From: Vicinamibacterales bacterium
Lineage (GTDB): Bacteria; Acidobacteriota; Vicinamibacteria; Vicinamibacterales; Fen-181
Reading direction: 5' to 3'
Assembly: GCA_036504215.1 (NCBI GenBank)
Contig: DASXVO010000049.1
Span: 1-64,000 of the forward strand
DNA length: 64,000 bases
Below are positions 52,871-64,000 of this stretch, piece by piece. A program made the position numbers and the translations under genes. The stretch's first letter is position 1. Each line of letters opens with the position of its first letter. A model generated the notes under the pieces. That model searched no databases. It was not told where the DNA came from and worked only from the letters and a program-made list of their open reading frames with translations.

Positions 52871-54325
52871 ATGTCGAGCGAACACAACCCGTTTGGTGAT
52901 ATGGACCCAGAGGTGTTTCGGCGGGAGGGGCACCGGATCGTTGACTGGATCGCGGAGTACTTCGCGCACCCCGAGAGATACCCGGTCCTGTCGCGCGTGA
53001 AGCCAGGTGACGTACGACGCGCACTGCCCACGCACGCGCCCGAGTCGGGAGAACCGTTCGACGCCATCCTCGCCGATTTCGAGCGCGTGATTGTGCCGGG
53101 CATCACGCACTGGAATCACCCGGGGTTCTTCGCGTACTTCGCCATCACCGGGAGCGGCCCCGGCGTGCTCGCCGAGCTCCTGTCGGCGGCGCTCAACGCC
53201 CAGGGGATGCTGTGGCGGACCTCGCCGTCCGTCACGGAACTCGAGGAGGTGTCACTCGGCTGGCTGCGGCAGCTCATGGGGCTGCCGGACGTTTTCGATG
53301 GCGTCATCTACGACACCGCCTCGGTGTCGAGCCTGCACGCACTCGCCACGGCCCGCGAAGCCGCCATCGCACGCGTCCGCAGCGCGGGGATGGCGGGCCG
53401 AGCCGATCTCCCCCGCTACCGTGTCTACTGCTCCGACCAGGCGCACTCATCGATCGACAAGGCCGTCATCCTGCTCGGCCTCGGCCACGACTCGCTCCGA
53501 AAGATCCCATCGGACGCCGAGTTCCGGATGCGTCCCGACGCGCTCGAGCAGGCGATCGCAGACGATCGCGCCGACGGCATCGTCCCGATGGCGGTCGTGG
53601 CCACCGTGGGCACCACGTCCACGACCAGCGTCGACCCCGTGCCGGCGATTGCCGGAATCTGCGAACGCGAGCACGCGTGGCTGCACGTGGACTGCGCCTA
53701 CGCCGGCGTCGCCGCGATCGTTCCGGAGTACCGCCACATCCTCGACGGCGTCGATCGCGCCGACTCGATCGTCGTCAATCCGCACAAGTGGCTGTTCACG
53801 CCGTTCGATCTCAGCGCGTTCTACTGCCGGCGCATGGATCTGCTTCGGCAGGCGTTCTCGCTGACGCCGGAGTACCTCCGCACGGTGGAAGCCGGCGAAG
53901 TCCGGAACCTGATGGACACGGGCGTTCAGCTCGGCCGCCGCTTCCGAGCGCTCAAGCTGTGGATGATCCTTCGCTACTTCGGCGCAGAAGGCATCCGCGC
54001 GCGGCTCTCCGAGCACATGCGCCTCGCACGCCTCTTTGCCGGTTGGGTGGACGCCGACCCGGAATTCGAGCGCCTCGCGCCCGTCCCGTTCAGCGTGGTC
54101 TGCTTCCGTGCCCGTCCGCGCGGCCGCGACTGGACCGAGCCCGACCTGGAGGCGTTCAACCAGAAACTCCTCGACGGGATGAACGCCACCGGAGAGGTGT
54201 TCCTGTCGCACACGAAGCTCAATGGACGCTTCGTGCTTCGGCTCGCGGTGGGAAATCTCAGGACCGAAGAGCGGCACGTCAGGAGGGCGTGGGAGTTGGT
54301 GAAGGAGAAAAGTGCTGAGTGCTAG
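52871..54325 (+). CDS. PLP-dependent aromatic-L-amino-acid decarboxylase-like
   Basis: 484 residues from the ATG at 52871. Group II decarboxylase: start with MDPEVFRREGHRIVDWIAEY, then NHPGFFAYFAITGSGPGVLA, LHVDCAYAGVAAIVPEYRH, and the PLP lysine in SIVVNPHKWLFTPFDLSAFY. The sequence matches DDC/TDC-like proteins widespread in Acidobacteriota; the real substrate (aromatic amino acids or others) is not fixed by these motifs. The last residues SAEC and the TAG stop are encoded by the AGTGCTG repeat that follows. Confidence 0.92.
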   Translation: MSSEHNPFGDMDPEVFRREGHRIVDWIAEYFAHPERYPVLSRVKPGDVRRALPTHAPESGEPFDAILADFERVIVPGITHWNHPGFFAYFAITGSGPGVLAELLSAALNAQGMLWRTSPSVTELEEVSLGWLRQLMGLPDVFDGVIYDTASVSSLHALATAREAAIARVRSAGMAGRADLPRYRVYCSDQAHSSIDKAVILLGLGHDSLRKIPSDAEFRMRPDALEQAIADDRADGIVPMAVVATVGTTSTTSVDPVPAIAGICEREHAWLHVDCAYAGVAAIVPEYRHILDGVDRADSIVVNPHKWLFTPFDLSAFYCRRMDLLRQAFSLTPEYLRTVEAGEVRNLMDTGVQLGRRFRALKLWMILRYFGAEGIRARLSEHMRLARLFAGWVDADPEFERLAPVPFSVVCFRARPRGRDWTEPDLEAFNQKLLDGMNATGEVFLSHTKLNGRFVLRLAVGNLRTEERHVRRAWELVKEKSAEC

Positions 54326-54350
54326 AAGAGTGCTGAGTGCTCGGTGCTAG
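54311..54350. repeat. AGTGCTG heptamer tract between convergent genes
   Basis: AGTGCTGAGTGCTAGAAG then AGTGCTGAGTGCTCGGTGC and TAG. It encodes the last four residues and stop of the decarboxylase and the stop of the short opposite ORF. Confidence 0.75.
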
Positions 54351-54490
54351 CTCCCGAACTCTCCAATCTCCGCTTCGATCGCGCGGATCTCCCCGTTGAC
54401 TCTCTGGATGCGCATCAGCTGGTCAAGGTCCTTCTTGCCCTTATCCACGACGCCGCCCACCGCCTTCGTCCCGTTGTGCAGGAACGACAT
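54347..54490 (-). CDS. small hypothetical protein, 47 residues
   Basis: From the ATG at 54490 with a strong GAAGGAG (about eight bases upstream), MSFLHNGTKAVGGVVDKGKK, then DLDQLMRIQRVNGEIRAIEA and EIGEFGS. The second half is a predicted amphipathic or coiled helix. No known family. The good ribosome-binding site and intact frame support translation. The antisense position next to the AGTGCTG tract and the very short length keep confidence low. Confidence 0.45.
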   Translation of the reverse strand: MSFLHNGTKAVGGVVDKGKKDLDQLMRIQRVNGEIRAIEAEIGEFGS

Positions 54491-54836
54491 CACGACTCCT
54501 TCGGGGCCGTTGCACTGAGTGGGAGCATCGCCCGGGCCGGCCCGCGACGAGACACTGTCCGTCAATCTGGACCTCGTCGCCATCGTCGCCGCCGCCGAGC
54601 GCGCCATGCAACCCGCGCGCCCAGCCCGCTCTCGAGACGCAGATCTCCCTGCAATCGAACATTTCTCGTGCAAGTCCATTCTCCGGCACTTCTCCCTGCC
54701 AGCATGCCGCATCGACATCTCCGTGGTGGCTGCAGCGCGTCGGGCTCGTCGCTGTCGATGATCGGACGGCCGAGTTCCTGCTGGCCCTCACGCCGCACAC
54801 ACGCGGACGGCAACCGTCACGAGGAAGGACGCGTTC
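54491..54836. other. intergenic region, no gene seen
   Basis: 346 bp between the divergent short ORF and the giant surface-protein gene. Weak overlapping frames on both strands lack family features and start signals. GAGGAAGG (54821-54828) is the ribosome-binding site for the ATG at 54837. No clear promoter box stands out. Confidence 0.6.
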
Positions 54837-55067
54837 ATGTTGGCGAGACGGACCCTCCTGGCCTTGGCACTCATCCTGGTCTCTTCGGCGGCCGCGCTGG
54901 CGCAGCCGTCACTCGCCGTCAACGATGTCCTCCCGCCGGCGATTGTGACAGCGACTGCTGGCGGGTCCGTCTCCGTCCTTGTGTCGGGCGGGCCTGGCAG
55001 TCGGACGGACTGGATCGCCCTCTATCCCCTGGGCGCGTCCGACCGCGCTTTCCTCTCGTGGCAGTAA
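54837..55067 (+). pseudogene. 5' part of the giant mosaic protein gene, ends at an in-frame TAA
   Basis: 76 codons before the stop. Signal peptide MLARRTLLALALILVSSAAA then LAQPS, with GAGGAAGG upstream. The mature part starts the first of four 107-residue Ig-like repeats (GGPGSRTDWIALYPLGASDR, then FLSWQ). The TAA at 55065 falls exactly where the other three repeats have TAC (WQYLSG or WRYLSG) at 55386, 55707 and 56028. The frame stays open after the stop for another 8.9 kb. On its own this piece would give a 76-residue peptide without function. It is best read as the broken start of the next entry, unless readthrough or a base-call error applies. Confidence 0.75.
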
Positions 55068-56192
55068 TTGAGCGGCACGACGTCGCCGCCCGACACCGGC
55101 TTGCCGACAGCGGTGCTGACGTTTTCGGTGCCTGTCTCCGCCGGAGACTATGAGTTCCGCCTCTTTGCGAACAACGGATACTCACGCCTCACCACGAGCA
55201 CGGTCGTGAGGGTCGCAGCGTCTCAGGCGCGAGTGGCCGTCAACGGAACGGCGCCCGGAACGCCCGTGACTGCTCCGGCGGGCGCAGAAGCGATCGTTGC
55301 TGTCGCCGGCGGTCCGGCGAACTCCACAGACTGGGTGGCCCTGTACGCCAGTGGAGGTCCGGACGCCGCACCGCTCTGGTGGCAGTACTTGAGCGGCTCT
55401 ACGGCGCCACCCGCAAGCGGAGTGTCGGAGGCCTCTCTGAGCTTCGCTCTGCCGGTCGTTGCGGGAGACTACGAGTTCCGATTCTTCGCCCACAACACGT
55501 ACGCGCGCCTGGCCACGAGCACCACGGTCACGGTTACCGCGTCGCAGGCGCAGCTCGCTGTCAACGGGGCGCCTTCGGGAACGCCGGTGACCGTGGCCGC
55601 CGGTGCGGGCACCAGCGTGGTGATCTCCGGCGGGCCCGGCAACGCTACCGACTGGGTCGGCCTCTACGCCGTCGGAGCGCCAGACACCTCGCTCCTCGCG
55701 TGGCGCTACTTGAGCGGAACGACCGCGCCGCCAGGCACTGGTCTCACCGAAGTCACTCTGCTCTTCGCCATGCCGACGGTCCCCGGCACCTACGAGTTCC
55801 GGTTCTTCGCGAGCAACGGGTACAGCCGGCTGGCGACGAGCGCCGCTATCACCATCCCGCCCTCGCCCGCACGGATCGCCGTCAATGGCGTGATAGCGCC
55901 CGCCACCGTGACCGCGGAGCCGGGCCAGGCAGTTGCCGTTCACCTCACCAACGCGCCCGGGAACGCAACCGACTGGGTTGCCCTGGCCCCCGTCGGCACG
56001 CCTGACACCGCGTACGTGGCGTGGCAGTACCTCTCCGGCTCGAGCACGCCACCCTCGGTGGGCATGAGTGAGGCCACCCTGACCTTCGCGATGTCCTCGA
56101 CGATTGGCGCGTACGAGTTCCGGCTCTTCGCCAGCAACGGGTTCGCCCTGGTGACGAAGAGCGGAACCGTCGCCGTGCAGGCCGGACCGCAA
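54918..56192 (+). repeat. four 321-bp tandem coding repeats
   Basis: Repeats begin at 54918, 55239, 55560 and 55881 (each at GTC-AA of VN), so the period is exactly 321 bp (107 codons) although the sequences have diverged. Each has the order VNG...GGPGNxTDWVxLY, WQYLSG, YEFRxFAxNGY. The fold is likely Ig-like; TDW-x-LY and YEFR resemble SKICH-type domains, by eye only. Confidence 0.93.
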
Positions 56193-59100
56193 GGCTGTGC
56201 CTACGCGCTGTCGCGGTCCACGCTGGCGACGTCATGGGCAGCCCGCTCTGACGGATTCAGCCTGACCACCGATGCCGCGTGCGCGTGGACCGTCAGCCAT
56301 CCCTGGATCGACGTCACGAGGGCGTCCGGCCAGGGCAACGCCGCGATCGGGTTCGTCGTCGAAGCGAACACGACGGGCGTGCCGCGGCTGGGGACGATTG
56401 AGGCCGGCGGGCGCACGTTCACCATCAGCCAGGCAGCAGGGCCCTGCGCGCTCTCTCTGGCTCCGGCTTCTGCCGACTTGGCACAGACCGGAGGCGCGGG
56501 TAGCTTCATCGCGAGCGCGTTGTGGGGATGCCAGCGACCGGCGGTCTCGAACGCATCGTGGATGAGCGCCGGACGCCTGGGATACGCGAGCGTCGTCCTT
56601 TCGGACGCCCCGAAGGCCTATTGGCGGCTCTCCGACGTGGGGACCACGACGGCCGCCGACACCAGCGGGAACGGGATCGACGCGCAGCTCGCGGGCACCT
56701 ATGTACAGGGCGTCGCGGCGTCGTTCGCAGATGGGGACGCCGCCACCTTCTTCTCCACGGACGGGTACGCCTACGTCGGTTACCGCACCGAGCTCGACCC
56801 TTCATCTGGCTCCTTCAGCCTCGAGGCCAGGGTGCGATTCACCGAACCGACCACGGGCACTATCGCGGGTGCGGTGTCCGACGTGTACGGCTACCAGCTG
56901 CAACTCGTCGGCAATCGCGCGCAGTTCCGGGCGGACTACTTCGACCCCGTCTTCAGTCTCGACAGCAGCGCCGAGCTGAACGACGGGACCTGGCACCACC
57001 TCGTCGGCGTTGCCGACGCCACGGCAGGCGAGGCGCGACTGTATGTCGACGGCCAGCTCGATGGAACGTCGCCCGCGACCGGTCCGGTCATCTTCGGCGG
57101 GGACTTCATCATCGGCGCCCGCAGCTACGCCAGCGAGGGGTTCATCACGGCCTCGATCGACGAAGTCGCGTATTACCCCCGGGCACTGACGCTCGAGCAA
57201 GTGTCGCGACACTTCAAGAGCCAGCACATGCCGCTGGCGAGCGACGGTCCGATCGAGGACGTCGTCGACTACGCGGCACAGGCCAACCCGACGGGCCTCA
57301 CGCGCAACGGCGCGCTCTCGCTGGGCGACACGACCTTCACGATCACGCAGGCCGCCTTGCCCTGCAGCCTGACCGTCGCGCAGGCCGCCGCAACGGCGCC
57401 CGAACAAGGTGCGACCGGAACGCTGGAACTGACGGGCGTTCCCGGGTGCGGTTGGTCGGCCTCCACCGACACACCGTGGATCACGATCGGTCGCCAGCTG
57501 GACGGCTATCGAGGTCAGGTCCTTGCCGACGGCCCCTCGGCCTACTGGCGTCTGGACGACGAGGGTACGACAACGGCCGTGGATGCGAGTGGCAACGGTT
57601 TCGACGCCACCTACGAGGGCGGCTACCAGCAGGGCGTACCCGGCGCCACCGCCGACGGCGATCCCGCGACGCGATTCCCCTCCGGCGGATACGGACAAGT
57701 CCGGTTCTACCGTGACGGCACGACGGTCGCGCCGAGCGGGCCGCTGACATTCGAAGCGTGGGTTCAGTATCGCGGGCAGGGCGGCGGCACGGTCGTCAGC
57801 ACCTGGAACTACAGTCTCGCCCTCGGACCGTCAGGGGCGAGCTTCTCGGCTACCTACGGGGAAGGACAGAAGGCGTTCGACCTCCAGGGCAGCCGGCCGA
57901 TCAACGACGGCGCATGGCACCACCTCGTCGGCACCGTGGATACCGCGGCGCAGACGGCAGCGCTCTACATCGACGGCATTCTCGAGGCCTCGGCGCCGAC
58001 CACCGGTTACCTGTACCGTGTTGAAGGCGTTTTCATTGGTCCCGCCGTCGCAGCGATCGACGAGGTGGCGGTCTATCCGGTCGTCCTGACACCGGAGCAG
58101 GTAGGCCACCACTACGACGCGCGCGTCTCGCCCGGCGGCGGCACCGGAATGCTCGAGTACATTGTCGCGCCCAACCAGACCATCGAAGCGCGCTCCGGCG
58201 TTCTGCACGTCGCCGGCGTGGCCGTTCCCGTGACACAGGCCGCCCGCCACTGCATCGACGTGACGCCGGCGGCGATTGACGTCGAGGCGTCGGGCGGCGC
58301 CGGCGCGATTGCCGTGAGCGCGATTTCAGGCGGATGCACGTGGCAGGCTGGCGCAGACGTGCGGTGGTTGAGCGTCGAGCCGACCGCCGGTACCGGGCCT
58401 GGCTCCGTTCAGTACACGGTTGCTGACAACGAGTCGGTCCTCAGGCGCATCGGCCACATCACCGTCAACGGGCAGGTCGTCACCGTGACGCAGGGGCCGG
58501 CCCCGCTGCGCCCACCGGCGCAGGGTTACTCCATTGCCGCCGGCGTCAGCCACACCCTGGCGGTCAAGAGCGACGGTACGGTCTGGAGCTGGGGGGCGAA
58601 CGACTACGGCCAACTTGGCGACGGAACCGGCAGCGAACGGTTCACGCCCGGACAGGTGCCGTCACTCTCGCCGGTCGTCGCCGTGGCCGCCGGCTACCAT
58701 TCGATGGCGCTGATGAGCGACGGCACCGTGTGGACGTGGGGCAGCAATCGCTATGGCCAGCTCGGTGCCGGCGCGATGGCGTACAGTCTCCAGCCCGTCC
58801 TCGTGACCGGATTGAGCGACGTGGTGACGATTGCCGCCGGGCGCTACCACAGCGTGGCGCTCAAGGCCGATGGTACGGTCTGGACGTGGGGCTGGAACCG
58901 CTACGGCCAGCTCGGCGACGGTACGACAACCAATCAGGGGGCGCCGATCATGGTACCGGGGCTCGCGCTGCCCGCCGTCGCGATCGCCGCGACGGGCGAC
59001 CGTACGATGCTGCTCGAGGCCGACGGCTCGGTGTGGGGCTTCGGGTACAACGGCAACGGCGAACTCGGCGACGGGAGTCCCTGGCAGGCCGTCACGTGGC

Positions 59101-62100
59101 TGGCGCAGGCCGCCGGGCTGCCGCCGACCGTCGCGGGTATCGGAGCGGGCGGCGTCCACGCGTATGCCATCACCTCGCACGGACAACTCTGGGCGTGGGG
59201 CGCCAATGGCAGCGGCCAACTCGGAGACGGAACGAAGATCGACCGCCTGCAACCGGTGGAGGTGTCTGCCGTCGGACCGGTGAGGCAGGTCGTGGGTGGC
59301 GCTGCACACACCATCGCACTGCGCACGGACGGATCGGTGTGGACGTGGGGTTCGAACGACTCCGGACAACTCGGCAACGGCACGCCGGCATGCCCCTCGG
59401 GCGACTTCACCACTTGTTCGGCGCGGCAGGCCGTGCCAACGCCAGCGGCGGTTGCCGGCCCTGCCGACATCGTCGCCGTGGCCGCCAACGGCCGGGCGAC
59501 GTTCGCCGTCGCTTCCGACGGCCGCGTCTGGTCGTGGGGCCTCAACGACGCGCGCCGGCTCGGTGACGGCACCACCGAGGCCCGCCCGTCGCCAATTCAG
59601 ATCGCAGAGCCCGGATTCGCGTGGCGGACCGGCACGCCGATCCTCGAGGCCTCCGGCACGTACTTCGATCCGTTCCAGGTCCACGGGGGACCGACGACGT
59701 CCGGCGCGGTCCTGCGCTACACGACGAACGGCAACGATCCCACCGAGACGGATCCGATCTTCCCGGTCGAGGGCATCTTCATCGCCGAGACGACGACAGT
59801 GAAGCTGAGGGCGTGGGCGGACGGGCGGCCGCCGAGCAACGTGGCGTCCGCTACGTTCGTCTTGAAGGTCCGGACACCCGTGTTCGAACCCGCCGCCAGT
59901 CTGTCCACCACGCCTCAGACCGTGACGATCGCGTCACCGACTGCCGGGGCGTCCCTGTTCTACACGACCGACGGCAGCACGCCACAGCCCGGCGAGTCGT
60001 CGACGACGGCCTATGCGGGCGGCATTGGCATTAGCACGAAGACGCAACTGATCGCGATTGGTCGCAAGGCAGGCTGGGCGGACAGCGACGCGGCGATTGC
60101 CGACTACCAGTTCAACTACGGGAGGCTGGCAGCACCGACCATTACGCCGCCGTCGGGCACCTACGTCTACGGCGATTCGGTCGTGATCTCCGCGGATCCG
60201 ATCGCCACCATCCGCTACACGACCGACAGCTCGCAGCCGACGTCCGCTTCGCTGGTGTACGGCGCGCCGATCGTGCTGACCGGACCGGTCACCCTGACTG
60301 CGATCGCGCTCCATCCCGACTGGAGCGACAGCCCGGCGGCCGTCGCGACGTTCGCCGCGAAGGTCGCCGCTCCGGTGTTCTCGCCGGGCGCCGGCAGCTA
60401 CCCCGAAGGCTCGCGCATCAGCGTCGTGAGCACGACACCCGGAGCCATCATCCACTACAGCACCAACGGCCAGGAACCAGGTGTGAACGACCCGGTCGTC
60501 GCCAACGGCGGCTCGCTGGCCGTCGGCAACTACGCGCTGAAGGCGAGGGCGTTCCGCGCGGGGCTCCTGGCGAGCGACGTGACGACGGCCGGCTACTCGC
60601 GGGACGGCGACGCGTGCCGCCTGTCCGTGTCTCCGCCGGTCGTGACCGTCGGCGCCGAGCCGGCGGGCGGCCTGTTCACCGTGACTGCAACCGGCAGTAG
60701 CTGTTCGTGGACCGCCACGACCGACGCGTCGTGGATAGCACTCGACGGGGTGAACGGATCTGGGCCGAGCGGCCAGTTGGCCTACCACGTCGCAGCCAAT
60801 TCAGGCCCGGCGCTGCGCGTCGGGTTCATTGCCGTCGGCGACATCGACGTGGTCGTGGTGCAACGCGGAACCGGTCTCTGCACGTCCAGCGTCTCGCCCG
60901 CGTCGATCGCGACAACGGCCGGCGCGACGACCGGAACGCTCGACGTCACGTTCGGTGACGCGGGCTGCACATGGAGCGCGTCGAGCGACGTTCCGTGGAT
61001 CGCCATCTCGACGCCGAACGCCGCGAGCGCGTACGCACAGGCGGTCGTGGCCGACCAGCCTGTCGGCTACTGGCCGCTTTCTGAGCCCGCCGGGGCCACG
61101 ACCGTCGCCGACGCATCGGGATACGGGCACGACGGGACGGTCACGTCGGGTGTCACGCTTGGCCAGCCGGGTGCACGCGGCGACGGCAGGACCTCGGCGG
61201 CATTCGACGGCGCCAGCGGCGCGGTGGTGATCCCGGCCGGCGCGGTACCGGAATTGGGTGCGTTCACCTGGGAAGCCTGGGTGAAAGTGCCAGGCGTCGC
61301 GGGCGCCCGCCGCGACATCGTCAGCTGGGGCGGCAGTGCCGGTGCCTTCAACCTGTGGATCGACGCCAACGCCAGCCAGGCGACGTTCGACCTGTTCCCG
61401 GCGGTCGGCAGCCGGCAGTCGGTTACGCTCGGGCCGACGGTGGTCGGTTCCGGATGGGTTCACCTCGTTTTCACAGCGGATGGCGCCGCGTGGCACGCCT
61501 ACATCAACGGCACGGCCGTGCCATCGGGCGCGATCGCCGGTGGACTGGCGTCGAGCGCGGATCTCCTCGTGCTCGGCCGTGACGGCGTCGCCGCGCAGGC
61601 ATGGTTCGACGGGTGGCTGGCCGACGTCGCCGTGTATCCGTACTCGCTCAACGCGGACCAGGTGTCCCGTCACTACGCGCTGCGCGAGGTGAGCGCAGCG
61701 GGCGCCGCGCCGCTCGCGTACGCCATCGAGGCCAACGACAGCGGTGCGGTGCGAACCGGCACGTTGACGGTGGCCGGCGTTCGGGTGCCCGTGAGCCAAG
61801 CGGCGGCCGTCGGTGTCTCAATTGTGGGGGGGGTGTCGCCGTCGCCCAATGCGGCCGGGTGGAACCACACGGCCGTCACGGTGTCCTTCACGTGCGCGGG
61901 AGCCGGCGCCGTCACGTGTCAGCCGCCGATGGAGGTGTCGCAGGACGGCGAGCAGGACGTCCAGGGCACCGCGTCGAACGATCTCGGCGCCACGGCGAAC
62001 GCCACCGTGCACGTGAAGATCGACCGGACGGCTCCAGTGGTCGTGATCACCTCACCGTCGCTCGGCGAACTCGTAGTCGCGGGGCCGGTCACGGTCCGAG

Positions 62101-64000
62101 GCTCGGTCATCGACGGGCTGTCTGGGCTGCTCGGCGTGTCGTGCAATGGCACGGCGGCGACGGTGGACGACACGGGGTTCACCTGCCAGGTCGTCGTTCC
62201 GGCCGGCACGACGACCGTCGAGGTCCTGGCGACCGATGTTGCGTCGAACGTGCGACGGGCGACCATCGACGTGGCGACGGTGGAGGAGGCGGTCACCACG
62301 CCGCCGCTGGGCCTGCGGGTGTCGCCGGCGAAGGCGAGCCTGGTGATGGGCGCGAGCCGCGGGTTTACGGTGAAGGACACGTTCGGGCGCGTGCTGCCCG
62401 GCATCACGTGGTCCGTGGACGCCGAGGGCGTCGCGTCACTCGAGCCGACGGGCGGGGAGGTGACGGTGACGGGCGTGACGGCGGGCGTGGTCCACGTGAC
62501 GGCCGCGTGGCAGGGCCTGACGGCCCAGGCCGAACTCACGGTGCTGGCCGTCGTCGGGACGACGTCCGAGGTGAGGACGCTGTGGTCGACGCCGCCGGTC
62601 GCCGGTTCGGTGCAGCGCATCGTGCAGGGCGCGACGCGGGCGGACGGCACGCACCGGATCTACACGTATGAGAGCCCGGGCGAGCCCCACAGCCACGACA
62701 TGATCCGGGCGTTCGAGCAGGACGGCCGCGAAGCATGGACGGCCGCGGCGGGGGGCGCGGTGCTGCAGGTGTCGGGCGACCCGTCGGGCGGCGTGGTGGC
62801 GCTCGTCCACGACTGGGAGGCGTTCACGAACCGCTTGCGGATCTTCGGCCCGCATGGCGGCGAGGTAAGCGGATCCGAGGGCGTCGGCCCGTTTGCCATT
62901 CACCCGAACGGTCCGCTCTACTACGTGAACCAGGCCAACACCCTTGTCGGCCTGGACATCGGCCTGGGCGGTGGGCCGGGCGCGACGCTGTCTGGGACGC
63001 CCGGCTACCCGACGGTGCTCCTGGACGGGTCGGTGGTGGTGCCGAGCGTCGTGGATCCGGAGCAACTCCAGTTGACGTTCGTGCGGAGCACGGGGGCGGT
63101 GGAGACGCAGGTGGTGACGGTTCCGAACGGCGGGCTGTGGTCTCCGTACCGGGCGATCCCGAACGGCCAAGGGGGCCTCCTGGTGCAACTGATCCGGCGG
63201 CTGGTGTGGCCGGGCGGCGACTACTGGCGGTGGGACGCGGTGGTGGTGGGGGTGGACGCGAGCGGAGCCCTCACCGGGAGCACGGGGCTCGGGGCCGACT
63301 GGGGTGAGATCGTCGTGGGCGAGAACGGGACCATCGTGGCGACGTCGCAAGTGGAGTACTCCACGGAGCCGTCGTGGGGCGGCGGGGCCAAGCGGCATGT
63401 GGGGATGCTCATGCCGCTGCAGGCGAACGGCAATCCTGGCGGGCTGGCGAGCTTCTACGGTCCGTCCGGGTCGTGCGGGTGGATCTGGGACAACATCGGC
63501 CAGCAGTGGTTCTACAACGGCGACTGCGGCCAGCCGGTCCTCAGCATCACCTCGGTCGCGGCCCGCGGCAGCGAGCTGATCGTGACGCTGAACGACGGCC
63601 AGGTGCTTGCGCCCGGTCCGCTCGGGCAGATGCGGCTCTCGAATCTGGTGCCCGCGACCGACGGCACGTATCTCGGCGGCGGCGCGGGCGGCGCGAGCGC
63701 CGGGGAACTGGTGAACGTCGCGGTGACGTCGGAGGAACCGGTGTCGCCGCTCGGGGCCGAGTGGCCGGAAGGAGCCGGTAGCCGTCAGAGCGCATACAGC
63801 GCGAGCCCGCTCTCAGCCCTTAGAGTCATTGCAGACGTGGGGGACAATGAGAGTCGAGCCTTGGCGTTCGCCGCCCTGAAAGACGCCTTGGTGCAAGACC
63901 CGGCCGGCAGCATCGCCGCGTCGAAGCTTTCGATGACAAAGGATGGCTACGTCCAGGTCAACACCACCATAGGAGACTTCAAACGCTCTGGCACCATTGC
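55068..64000 (+). CDS. giant secreted mosaic protein: Ig-like repeats, BACON with nested LamG, RCC1, chitobiase-C, Big2 (runs off right edge)
   Basis: Continuation of the frame that starts at 54837; no stop from 55068 to the window end, about 2,977 codons. Order: rest of the four 321-bp repeats; BACON (56196-56444); BACON 56445-57362 split by LamG 1 (56583-57218); BACON 57363-58250 split by LamG 2 (57507-58118); BACON 58251-58510; seven RCC1 repeats 58527-59610 (DGTVWTWGSNRYGQLGAG type); four chitobiase-C-like repeats 59634-60600 (IHYSTNGQEP type); BACON 60615-60876; BACON 60879-61805 split by LamG 3 (61032-61682); Ig-like domains 61806-62300; Big2 62313-62550; then a propeller-like region to the edge. 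BACON and LamG domains bind sugars, so an outer surface or secreted adhesin or polysaccharide-binding role is likely. No catalytic domain is visible. A TTG directly follows the TAA and could be a weak restart. Confidence 0.85.
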   Translation, partial: MSGTTSPPDTGLPTAVLTFSVPVSAGDYEFRLFANNGYSRLTTSTVVRVAASQARVAVNGTAPGTPVTAPAGAEAIVAVAGGPANSTDWVALYASGGPDAAPLWWQYLSGSTAPPASGVSEASLSFALPVVAGDYEFRFFAHNTYARLATSTTVTVTASQAQLAVNGAPSGTPVTVAAGAGTSVVISGGPGNATDWVGLYAVGAPDTSLLAWRYLSGTTAPPGTGLTEVTLLFAMPTVPGTYEFRFFASNGYSRLATSAAITIPPSPARIAVNGVIAPATVTAEPGQAVAVHLTNAPGNATDWVALAPVGTPDTAYVAWQYLSGSSTPPSVGMSEATLTFAMSSTIGAYEFRLFASNGFALVTKSGTVAVQAGPQGCAYALSRSTLATSWAARSDGFSLTTDAACAWTVSHPWIDVTRASGQGNAAIGFVVEANTTGVPRLGTIEAGGRTFTISQAAGPCALSLAPASADLAQTGGAGSFIASALWGCQRPAVSNASWMSAGRLGYASVVLSDAPKAYWRLSDVGTTTAADTSGNGIDAQLAGTYVQGVAASFADGDAATFFSTDGYAYVGYRTELDPSSGSFSLEARVRFTEPTTGTIAGAVSDVYGYQLQLVGNRAQFRADYFDPVFSLDSSAELNDGTWHHLVGVADATAGEARLYVDGQLDGTSPATGPVIFGGDFIIGARSYASEGFITASIDEVAYYPRALTLEQVSRHFKSQHMPLASDGPIEDVVDYAAQANPTGLTRNGALSLGDTTFTITQAALPCSLTVAQAAATAPEQGATGTLELTGVPGCGWSASTDTPWITIGRQLDGYRGQVLADGPSAYWRLDDEGTTTAVDASGNGFDATYEGGYQQGVPGATADGDPATRFPSGGYGQVRFYRDGTTVAPSGPLTFEAWVQYRGQGGGTVVSTWNYSLALGPSGASFSATYGEGQKAFDLQGSRPINDGAWHHLVGTVDTAAQTAALYIDGILEASAPTTGYLYRVEGVFIGPAVAAIDEVAVYPVVLTPEQVGHHYDARVSPGGGTGMLEYIVAPNQTIEARSGVLHVAGVAVPVTQAARHCIDVTPAAIDVEASGGAGAIAVSAISGGCTWQAGADVRWLSVEPTAGTGPGSVQYTVADNESVLRRIGHITVNGQVVTVTQGPAPLRPPAQGYSIAAGVSHTLAVKSDGTVWSWGANDYGQLGDGTGSERFTPGQVPSLSPVVAVAAGYHSMALMSDGTVWTWGSNRYGQLGAGAMAYSLQPVLVTGLSDVVTIAAGRYHSVALKADGTVWTWGWNRYGQLGDGTTTNQGAPIMVPGLALPAVAIAATGDRTMLLEADGSVWGFGYNGNGELGDGSPWQAVTWLAQAAGLPPTVAGIGAGGVHAYAITSHGQLWAWGANGSGQLGDGTKIDRLQPVEVSAVGPVRQVVGGAAHTIALRTDGSVWTWGSNDSGQLGNGTPACPSGDFTTCSARQAVPTPAAVAGPADIVAVAANGRATFAVASDGRVWSWGLNDARRLGDGTTEARPSPIQIAEPGFAWRTGTPILEASGTYFDPFQVHGGPTTSGAVLRYTTNGNDPTETDPIFPVEGIFIAETTTVKLRAWADGRPPSNVASATFVLKVRTPVFEPAASLSTTPQTVTIASPTAGASLFYTTDGSTPQPGESSTTAYAGGIGISTKTQLIAIGRKAGWADSDAAIADYQFNYGRLAAPTITPPSGTYVYGDSVVISADPIATIRYTTDSSQPTSASLVYGAPIVLTGPVTLTAIALHPDWSDSPAAVATFAAKVAAPVFSPGAGSYPEGSRISVVSTTPGAIIHYSTNGQEPGVNDPVVANGGSLAVGNYALKARAFRAGLLASDVTTAGYSRDGDACRLSVSPPVVTVGAEPAGGLFTVTATGSSCSWTATTDASWIALDGVNGSGPSGQLAYHVAANSGPALRVGFIAVGDIDVVVVQRGTGLCTSSVSPASIATTAGATTGTLDVTFGDAGCTWSASSDVPWIAISTPNAASAYAQAVVADQPVGYWPLSEPAGATTVADASGYGHDGTVTSGVTLGQPGARGDGRTSAAFDGASGAVVIPAGAVPELGAFTWEAWVKVPGVAGARRDIVSWGGSAGAFNLWIDANASQATFDLFPAVGSRQSVTLGPTVVGSGWVHLVFTADGAAWHAYINGTAVPSGAIAGGLASSADLLVLGRDGVAAQAWFDGWLADVAVYPYSLNADQVSRHYALREVSAAGAAPLAYAIEANDSGAVRTGTLTVAGVRVPVSQAAAVGVSIVGGVSPSPNAAGWNHTAVTVSFTCAGAGAVTCQPPMEVSQDGEQDVQGTASNDLGATANATVHVKIDRTAPVVVITSPSLGELVVAGPVTVRGSVIDGLSGLLGVSCNGTAATVDDTGFTCQVVVPAGTTTVEVLATDVASNVRRATIDVATVEEAVTTPPLGLRVSPAKASLVMGASRGFTVKDTFGRVLPGITWSVDAEGVASLEPTGGEVTVTGVTAGVVHVTAAWQGLTAQAELTVLAVVGTTSEVRTLWSTPPVAGSVQRIVQGATRADGTHRIYTYESPGEPHSHDMIRAFEQDGREAWTAAAGGAVLQVSGDPSGGVVALVHDWEAFTNRLRIFGPHGGEVSGSEGVGPFAIHPNGPLYYVNQANTLVGLDIGLGGGPGATLSGTPGYPTVLLDGSVVVPSVVDPEQLQLTFVRSTGAVETQVVTVPNGGLWSPYRAIPNGQGGLLVQLIRRLVWPGGDYWRWDAVVVGVDASGALTGSTGLGADWGEIVVGENGTIVATSQVEYSTEPSWGGGAKRHVGMLMPLQANGNPGGLASFYGPSGSCGWIWDNIGQQWFYNGDCGQPVLSITSVAARGSELIVTLNDGQVLAPGPLGQMRLSNLVPATDGTYLGGGAGGASAGELVNVAVTSEEPVSPLGAEWPEGAGSRQSAYSASPLSALRVIADVGDNESRALAFAALKDALVQDPAGSIAASKLSMTKDGYVQVNTTIGDFKRSGTI

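What the first reader, a model, noticed from the sequence alone, without database searches (positions are those of the whole stretch)
55065..55067. Single in-frame TAA in a >3,000-codon gene, at a position that is TAC in all three sister repeats
The frame before and after the TAA is the same and stays open for 8.9 kb. Codons at +321, +642 and +963 bases are TAC in WQYLSG/WRYLSG. One C-to-A change therefore explains the stop; no frameshift is needed. Possibilities are a very recent pseudogene, phase-like switching of a surface protein, stop-codon readthrough, restart at the adjacent TTG, or a base-call error.
Basis: seen in the sequence. Interest (0 to 1): 0.75.

Follow-up and report, generated by a model that had tools for sequence, protein, structure and literature searches.

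The report
One recent stop in giant protein
A very large secreted-protein gene in an uncultured Acidobacteria-like bacterium carries one stop codon at its 77th codon that looks like a single fresh mutation (or a sequencing error), not a special recoding signal; what is more unusual is that the gene sits in an inserted island with spare, swappable ends.

Summary
TAA at 55065-55067 is codon 77 of a gene that starts at ATG 54837 (strong Shine-Dalgarno, signal peptide). The same frame stays open to TAA 64536-64538, beyond the window: 3,233 codons, no other stop or frameshift. The affected residue is a tyrosine in 71 of 73 aligned repeat units from related proteins; none has a stop there. The genome uses TAA as an ordinary terminator, has no tRNA that reads UAA, and shows no RNA structure, simple repeat or tight inverted repeat at the site. 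The adjacent TTG has almost no ribosome site and would lose the signal peptide. Best reading: one very recent nonsense substitution (or a one-base consensus error) leaving a 76-aa fragment. Readthrough and programmed switching are not supported. No reads or same-species genome were available, so mutation versus error stays open. New context: the gene lies in an island absent from two same-genus genomes, where the flanking genes are about 100 bp apart. The island also holds 90-99% identical partial copies of the gene's 3' part, one fused to a different C-terminus. This layout works like a polymorphic-toxin locus with displaced tips; membership is only partly met.

The parts
54837..55064 (+). 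5' part of the gene: signal peptide and first half of repeat 1 (76 codons), ATG start
   Evidence: translation MLARRTLLALALILVSSAAALAQPS...; ribosome site GAGGAAGGA, duplex -8.0 kcal/mol; hydrophobic N-terminus
55065..55067 (+). in-frame TAA, codon 77, at an otherwise conserved tyrosine position of repeat 1
   Evidence: Tyr in 71 of 73 aligned units
55068..64000 (+). rest of the same reading frame (continues to 64538 on contig C49): repeats 2-4, BACON, LamG, RCC1, CHB_HEX_C, Glucodextran_B, stem, C-terminal HEFGH domain
   Evidence: (end at 64538), Pfam hits
54906..56189 (+). four tandem 107-aa repeats, beta-sandwich fold
   Evidence: AlphaFold2 model of repeat 3, pLDDT 96.8
61410..61701 (+). 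segment (third LamG) repeated at 99% identity at the right end of the contig (C49:66199-66490)
62612..63748 (+). stem segment with 95% and 90% identical partial copies on contig C46, one fused to a different C-terminus
54305..64000 (+). left part of the island absent from same-genus relatives; left border just inside the 3' end of the decarboxylase gene
52913..54325 (+). left flank: pyridoxal-dependent decarboxylase gene, conserved in relatives

Best explanation
One point change turned a conserved tyrosine codon into TAA at codon 77 of a giant secreted modular protein. Ribosomes start at ATG 54837 and stop after 76 residues, inside the first beta-sandwich repeat, so the 3,233-codon protein is not made. 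The change is recent, because nothing else in 9.7 kb is broken. It may be fixed or a strain variant (a loss-of-function allele of an accessory island gene). Shown: the stop, the otherwise intact frame, the tyrosine conservation, the ordinary use of TAA, and no TAA-reading tRNA. Inferred: that the base is real and that no protein is made.
For: Same frame intact on both sides to 64538. Tyr in 71 of 73 aligned repeat units, with no stop in that column. About 2.7% of point changes in this gene create a stop. The lack of further lesions limits neutral decay to about 0.3-1.1% divergence, depending on the assumed indel rate. The stem was under purifying selection against its paralogue, dN/dS 0.25. 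TAA is the terminator of 5 of 37 predicted genes on the contig, including this one. None of the 46 tRNAs has a UUA anticodon, and the only tRNA-Tyr has GUA. The gene is accessory: no same-genus genome searched has the repeats or the stem, and the locus is an insertion.
Against: No reads, no second strain and no expression data. The assembly is fragmented (90 contigs), so a one-base consensus error or a minority-strain base would look identical.
Confidence: 0.6

Rival explanations
1. Consensus or assembly error: the true base differs and the gene is intact.
For: Nothing else in the gene is damaged, the gene looks constrained, and the source is a 90-contig draft with 3.45% estimated contamination. 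A single substitution is all that is needed.
Against: The window looks clean: the neighbouring genes that were scanned and hit Pfam mostly carry complete, unbroken domains. The region round the stop is not a near-identical repeat in the genome (best other match 64%), so copy mixing during assembly is unlikely there.
Confidence: 0.3
2. Restart at the adjacent TTG 55068 or another internal start gives a 3,156-residue protein without a signal peptide.
For: TAATTG is a stop-start arrangement that can allow reinitiation (general knowledge).
Against: Predicted ribosome-site duplex is -1.5 kcal/mol at TTG 55068 against -8.0 at ATG 54837. The product would start inside a beta-sandwich and lack the signal peptide, although its domains are of extracellular kinds.
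Confidence: 0.05
3. Programmed readthrough or recoding of UAA makes the full protein at a low, regulated level.
For: The frame downstream is open and constrained.
Against: UAA is the least read-through stop in E. coli (PMC11126739). No UAA-reading tRNA, no structure 3' of the stop (z = 0.67), no Rfam match above its cut-off. Relatives have tyrosine there, not a stop.
Confidence: 0.03
4. Reversible phase-like switching of a surface or secreted protein.
For: Repeat-rich giant secreted protein; near-identical partial copies exist in the locus.
Against: The change is a substitution, not a repeat-length change. There is no simple repeat at the site and no close inverted repeat around it. The partial copies found cover only the 3' part of the gene, not codon 77.
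Confidence: 0.02

Closest known systems
Recent single-nonsense pseudogenes (loss-of-function alleles) in accessory bacterial genes
   Same: one inactivating lesion, intact frame elsewhere, start and ribosome site preserved, accessory gene
   Different: allele frequency in the population is unknown; a base error is not excluded
Polymorphic toxin systems with displaced C-terminal cassettes (PMC3482391)
   Same: secreted giant with a constant body, a sharp junction to a variable C-terminal tip, near-identical body fragments downstream carrying another tip, a small multi-pass membrane ORF after each tip
   Different: no RHS, filamentous, PAAR or WXG carrier domains found; the tips match no known toxin family and one resembles stand-alone lipoprotein-like zincins, so they may be secreted peptidases rather than toxins

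Membership tests
Recent pseudogene | inactivating lesion relative to relatives | tested here: met
   TAA at a position that is Tyr in 71 of 73 units
Recent pseudogene | lesion real and present in the population | not testable with these tools
   no reads and no second genome of the species; metagenome scans not available
Recent pseudogene | few or no further lesions | tested here: met
   no other stop or frameshift in 3,233 codons
Stop-codon readthrough or recoded gene | stop conserved in relatives | tested here: not met
   none of 73 aligned units has a stop in that column; no ortholog of the whole gene was available
Stop-codon readthrough or recoded gene | decoding tRNA or stimulatory RNA element | tested here: not met
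   46 tRNAs, none with UUA anticodon; fold z = 0.67
Alternative genetic code (TAA = sense) | TAA not used as terminator | tested here: not met
   TAA ends 5 of 37 predicted genes on the contig, including this gene
Phase-variable gene | simple-sequence repeat or invertible segment at the switch | tested here: not met
Polymorphic toxin system | secreted constant body with variable C-terminal tip and sharp junction | tested here: met
   copy diverges just after TSEEP; G124 relative has the same middle and another tip
Polymorphic toxin system | displaced tip cassettes next to the full gene | tested here: met
   partial copies on C49 right end and C46 end; flank synteny in G001 and G002 puts the two contig ends together; the join itself is inferred
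Polymorphic toxin system | recognised toxin domain at the tip | tested here: not met
   no Pfam, NCBIfam or PADLOC family above cut-off; only HExxH motifs
Polymorphic toxin system | cognate immunity gene after the tip | tested here: inconclusive
   small multi-pass membrane ORFs follow both tips; no family match

The most novel reading that the evidence does not exclude
The island is a polymorphic-toxin-like locus on an undescribed carrier (beta-sandwich repeats, BACON, LamG, RCC1 and a stem) with swappable metallopeptidase-like tips, and the codon-77 stop is a naturally selected OFF allele that disarms the full-length copy while spare tips remain nearby.
Probability: 0.12. Interest if true: 0.5.

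Novelty: new member of a known kind. Interest (0 to 1): 0.27.

Why it matters
The stop itself is ordinary: a single recent loss-of-function change or a base error. It shows that an in-frame stop in a long open frame should first be tested against conservation, tRNA set and stop usage. The island is the more useful lead: a giant secreted carrier with exchangeable zincin-like C-termini in an Acidobacteria-like lineage, inserted at a site that is empty in same-genus genomes.

Tried and rejected
Alternative code: rejected, since TAA ends genes here. Suppressor tRNA: all 46 tRNAs found were examined, none reads UAA. Recoding structure: none. Recurrent stop in relatives: the 'stops inside' flags were checked on the loci that were fetched; there the repeats lie in single open frames, and the only unit with an internal stop is one distant match, outside the stop column. 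Second giant RCC1 gene on C21: its stop is a true end, followed by non-homologous sequence. Copy mixing in assembly at the stop: unlikely, as the 5' region is single copy. Same stretch in viral contigs: no match. Plasmids: no relative of the stem. C-terminal tip in solved structures: no convincing hit. PDB fold search of the repeat: no match at E <= 0.001, only generic Ig-like sandwiches. Literature on stops in metagenome-assembled genomes: nothing held for the terms used.

Full report
Observation. The TAA at 55065-55067 is real in the given sequence and in frame with ATG 54837, as codon 77. The three sister repeats carry TAC at +321, +642 and +963. The window cuts the gene: on the full contig (C49, 66,490 bp) the frame runs to TAA 64536-64538, giving 3,233 codons with no other stop. 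About 75 stops would be expected by chance in such a length at this base composition.

What the gene is. It has a signal peptide, four 107-residue repeats, then BACON, Laminin_G_3, RCC1, CHB_HEX_C/Fn3_assoc and Glucodextran_B domains, a stem, and a C-terminus with an HEFGH motif (only a sub-threshold Reprolysin-like hit). AlphaFold2 predicts repeat 3 as a confident beta-sandwich (pLDDT 96.8). The tyrosine equivalent to codon 77 closes the fourth strand, so the 76-residue product lacks about half of the first sandwich. Nearest matches outside the genome are other large proteins in related and distant metagenome-assembled genomes.

Is the stop functional? In 73 aligned repeat units from relatives' loci (a few loci duplicate one another) the position is Tyr in 71, a gap in one and Thr in one; none has a stop there. 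TAA is an ordinary terminator for 5 of 37 predicted genes on the contig, including this one. The 46 tRNAs found in the genome contain no UUA anticodon. RNA folding round the stop is no stronger than shuffled sequence. UAA is the least leaky stop in E. coli (PMC11126739). TTG 55068 has a predicted ribosome-site duplex of -1.5 kcal/mol against -8.0 at ATG 54837, and a protein started there would lack the signal peptide. There is no simple repeat and no close inverted repeat at the site.

How old? With 2.7% of point changes making stops, the absence of a second lesion bounds neutral decay to about 1.1% divergence, or about 0.3% if indels occur at a tenth of the substitution rate (the indel rates are assumptions). 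The stem compared with its paralogue shows dN/dS 0.25, so the body was under purifying selection until recently. A one-base error fits equally well, but the scanned neighbouring genes look intact, which argues against a generally poor consensus.

The island. The right end of C49 is a 292-bp, 99% copy of the gene's own LamG segment. The end of contig C46 begins inside a 95% copy of the stem, fused to a different C-terminus with AHELGHQ and followed by a membrane ORF, and then a 90% stem fragment. In G001 and G002 (same genus) the decarboxylase left of the gene and the amidohydrolase-like gene right of the C46 copies are convergent neighbours about 100 bp apart. Homology stops at 54304 on the left and resumes at C46 reverse-strand position 2996 on the right. 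The two contig ends therefore very probably join, and the locus is an insertion of more than 15 kb. The second tip is related to stand-alone, apparently lipoprotein-type zincin-like proteins in another family of the order; the first tip has no relative in the other 192 genomes of the class that were searched. A 2,421-residue relative in G124 shares the middle but has another N-terminus and tip. This works like the constant-body, exchangeable-tip plan of polymorphic toxins (PMC3482391), but the carrier domains differ and no toxin family is recognised, so membership is not claimed.

Verdict. Observation confirmed; most likely a recent nonsense allele (0.6) or a base error (0.3). Programmed explanations are unlikely.

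Noticed in passing
L003:12199-12490 (C49:66199-66490) and L055 (C46 end): Contig ends fall in near-identical copies of the giant gene's own 3' part, one fused to a different zincin-like C-terminus: a displaced-tip array in an island absent from two same-genus genomes.
   Followed up: yes
window 54347-54493, minus strand: 48-residue ORF (MSFLHNGTKAVGGVVDKGKKDLDQLMRIQRVNGEIRAIEAEIGEFGS) that looks like the start of a truncated gene, just inside the left border of the island.
   Followed up: no
window 54306-54341: Two copies of an 18-bp tandem repeat (AGAAAAGTGCTGAGTGCT) exactly at the left border of the island.
   Followed up: partly
L092:6589-18594 (C21:20589-32594): Another giant ORF (4,002 codons) made mostly of RCC1 repeats, intact.
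   Followed up: partly
L056 (G030:C8:76001-92000): Two large ORFs in opposite orientation in a related genome, each with several units of the same repeat.
   Followed up: no
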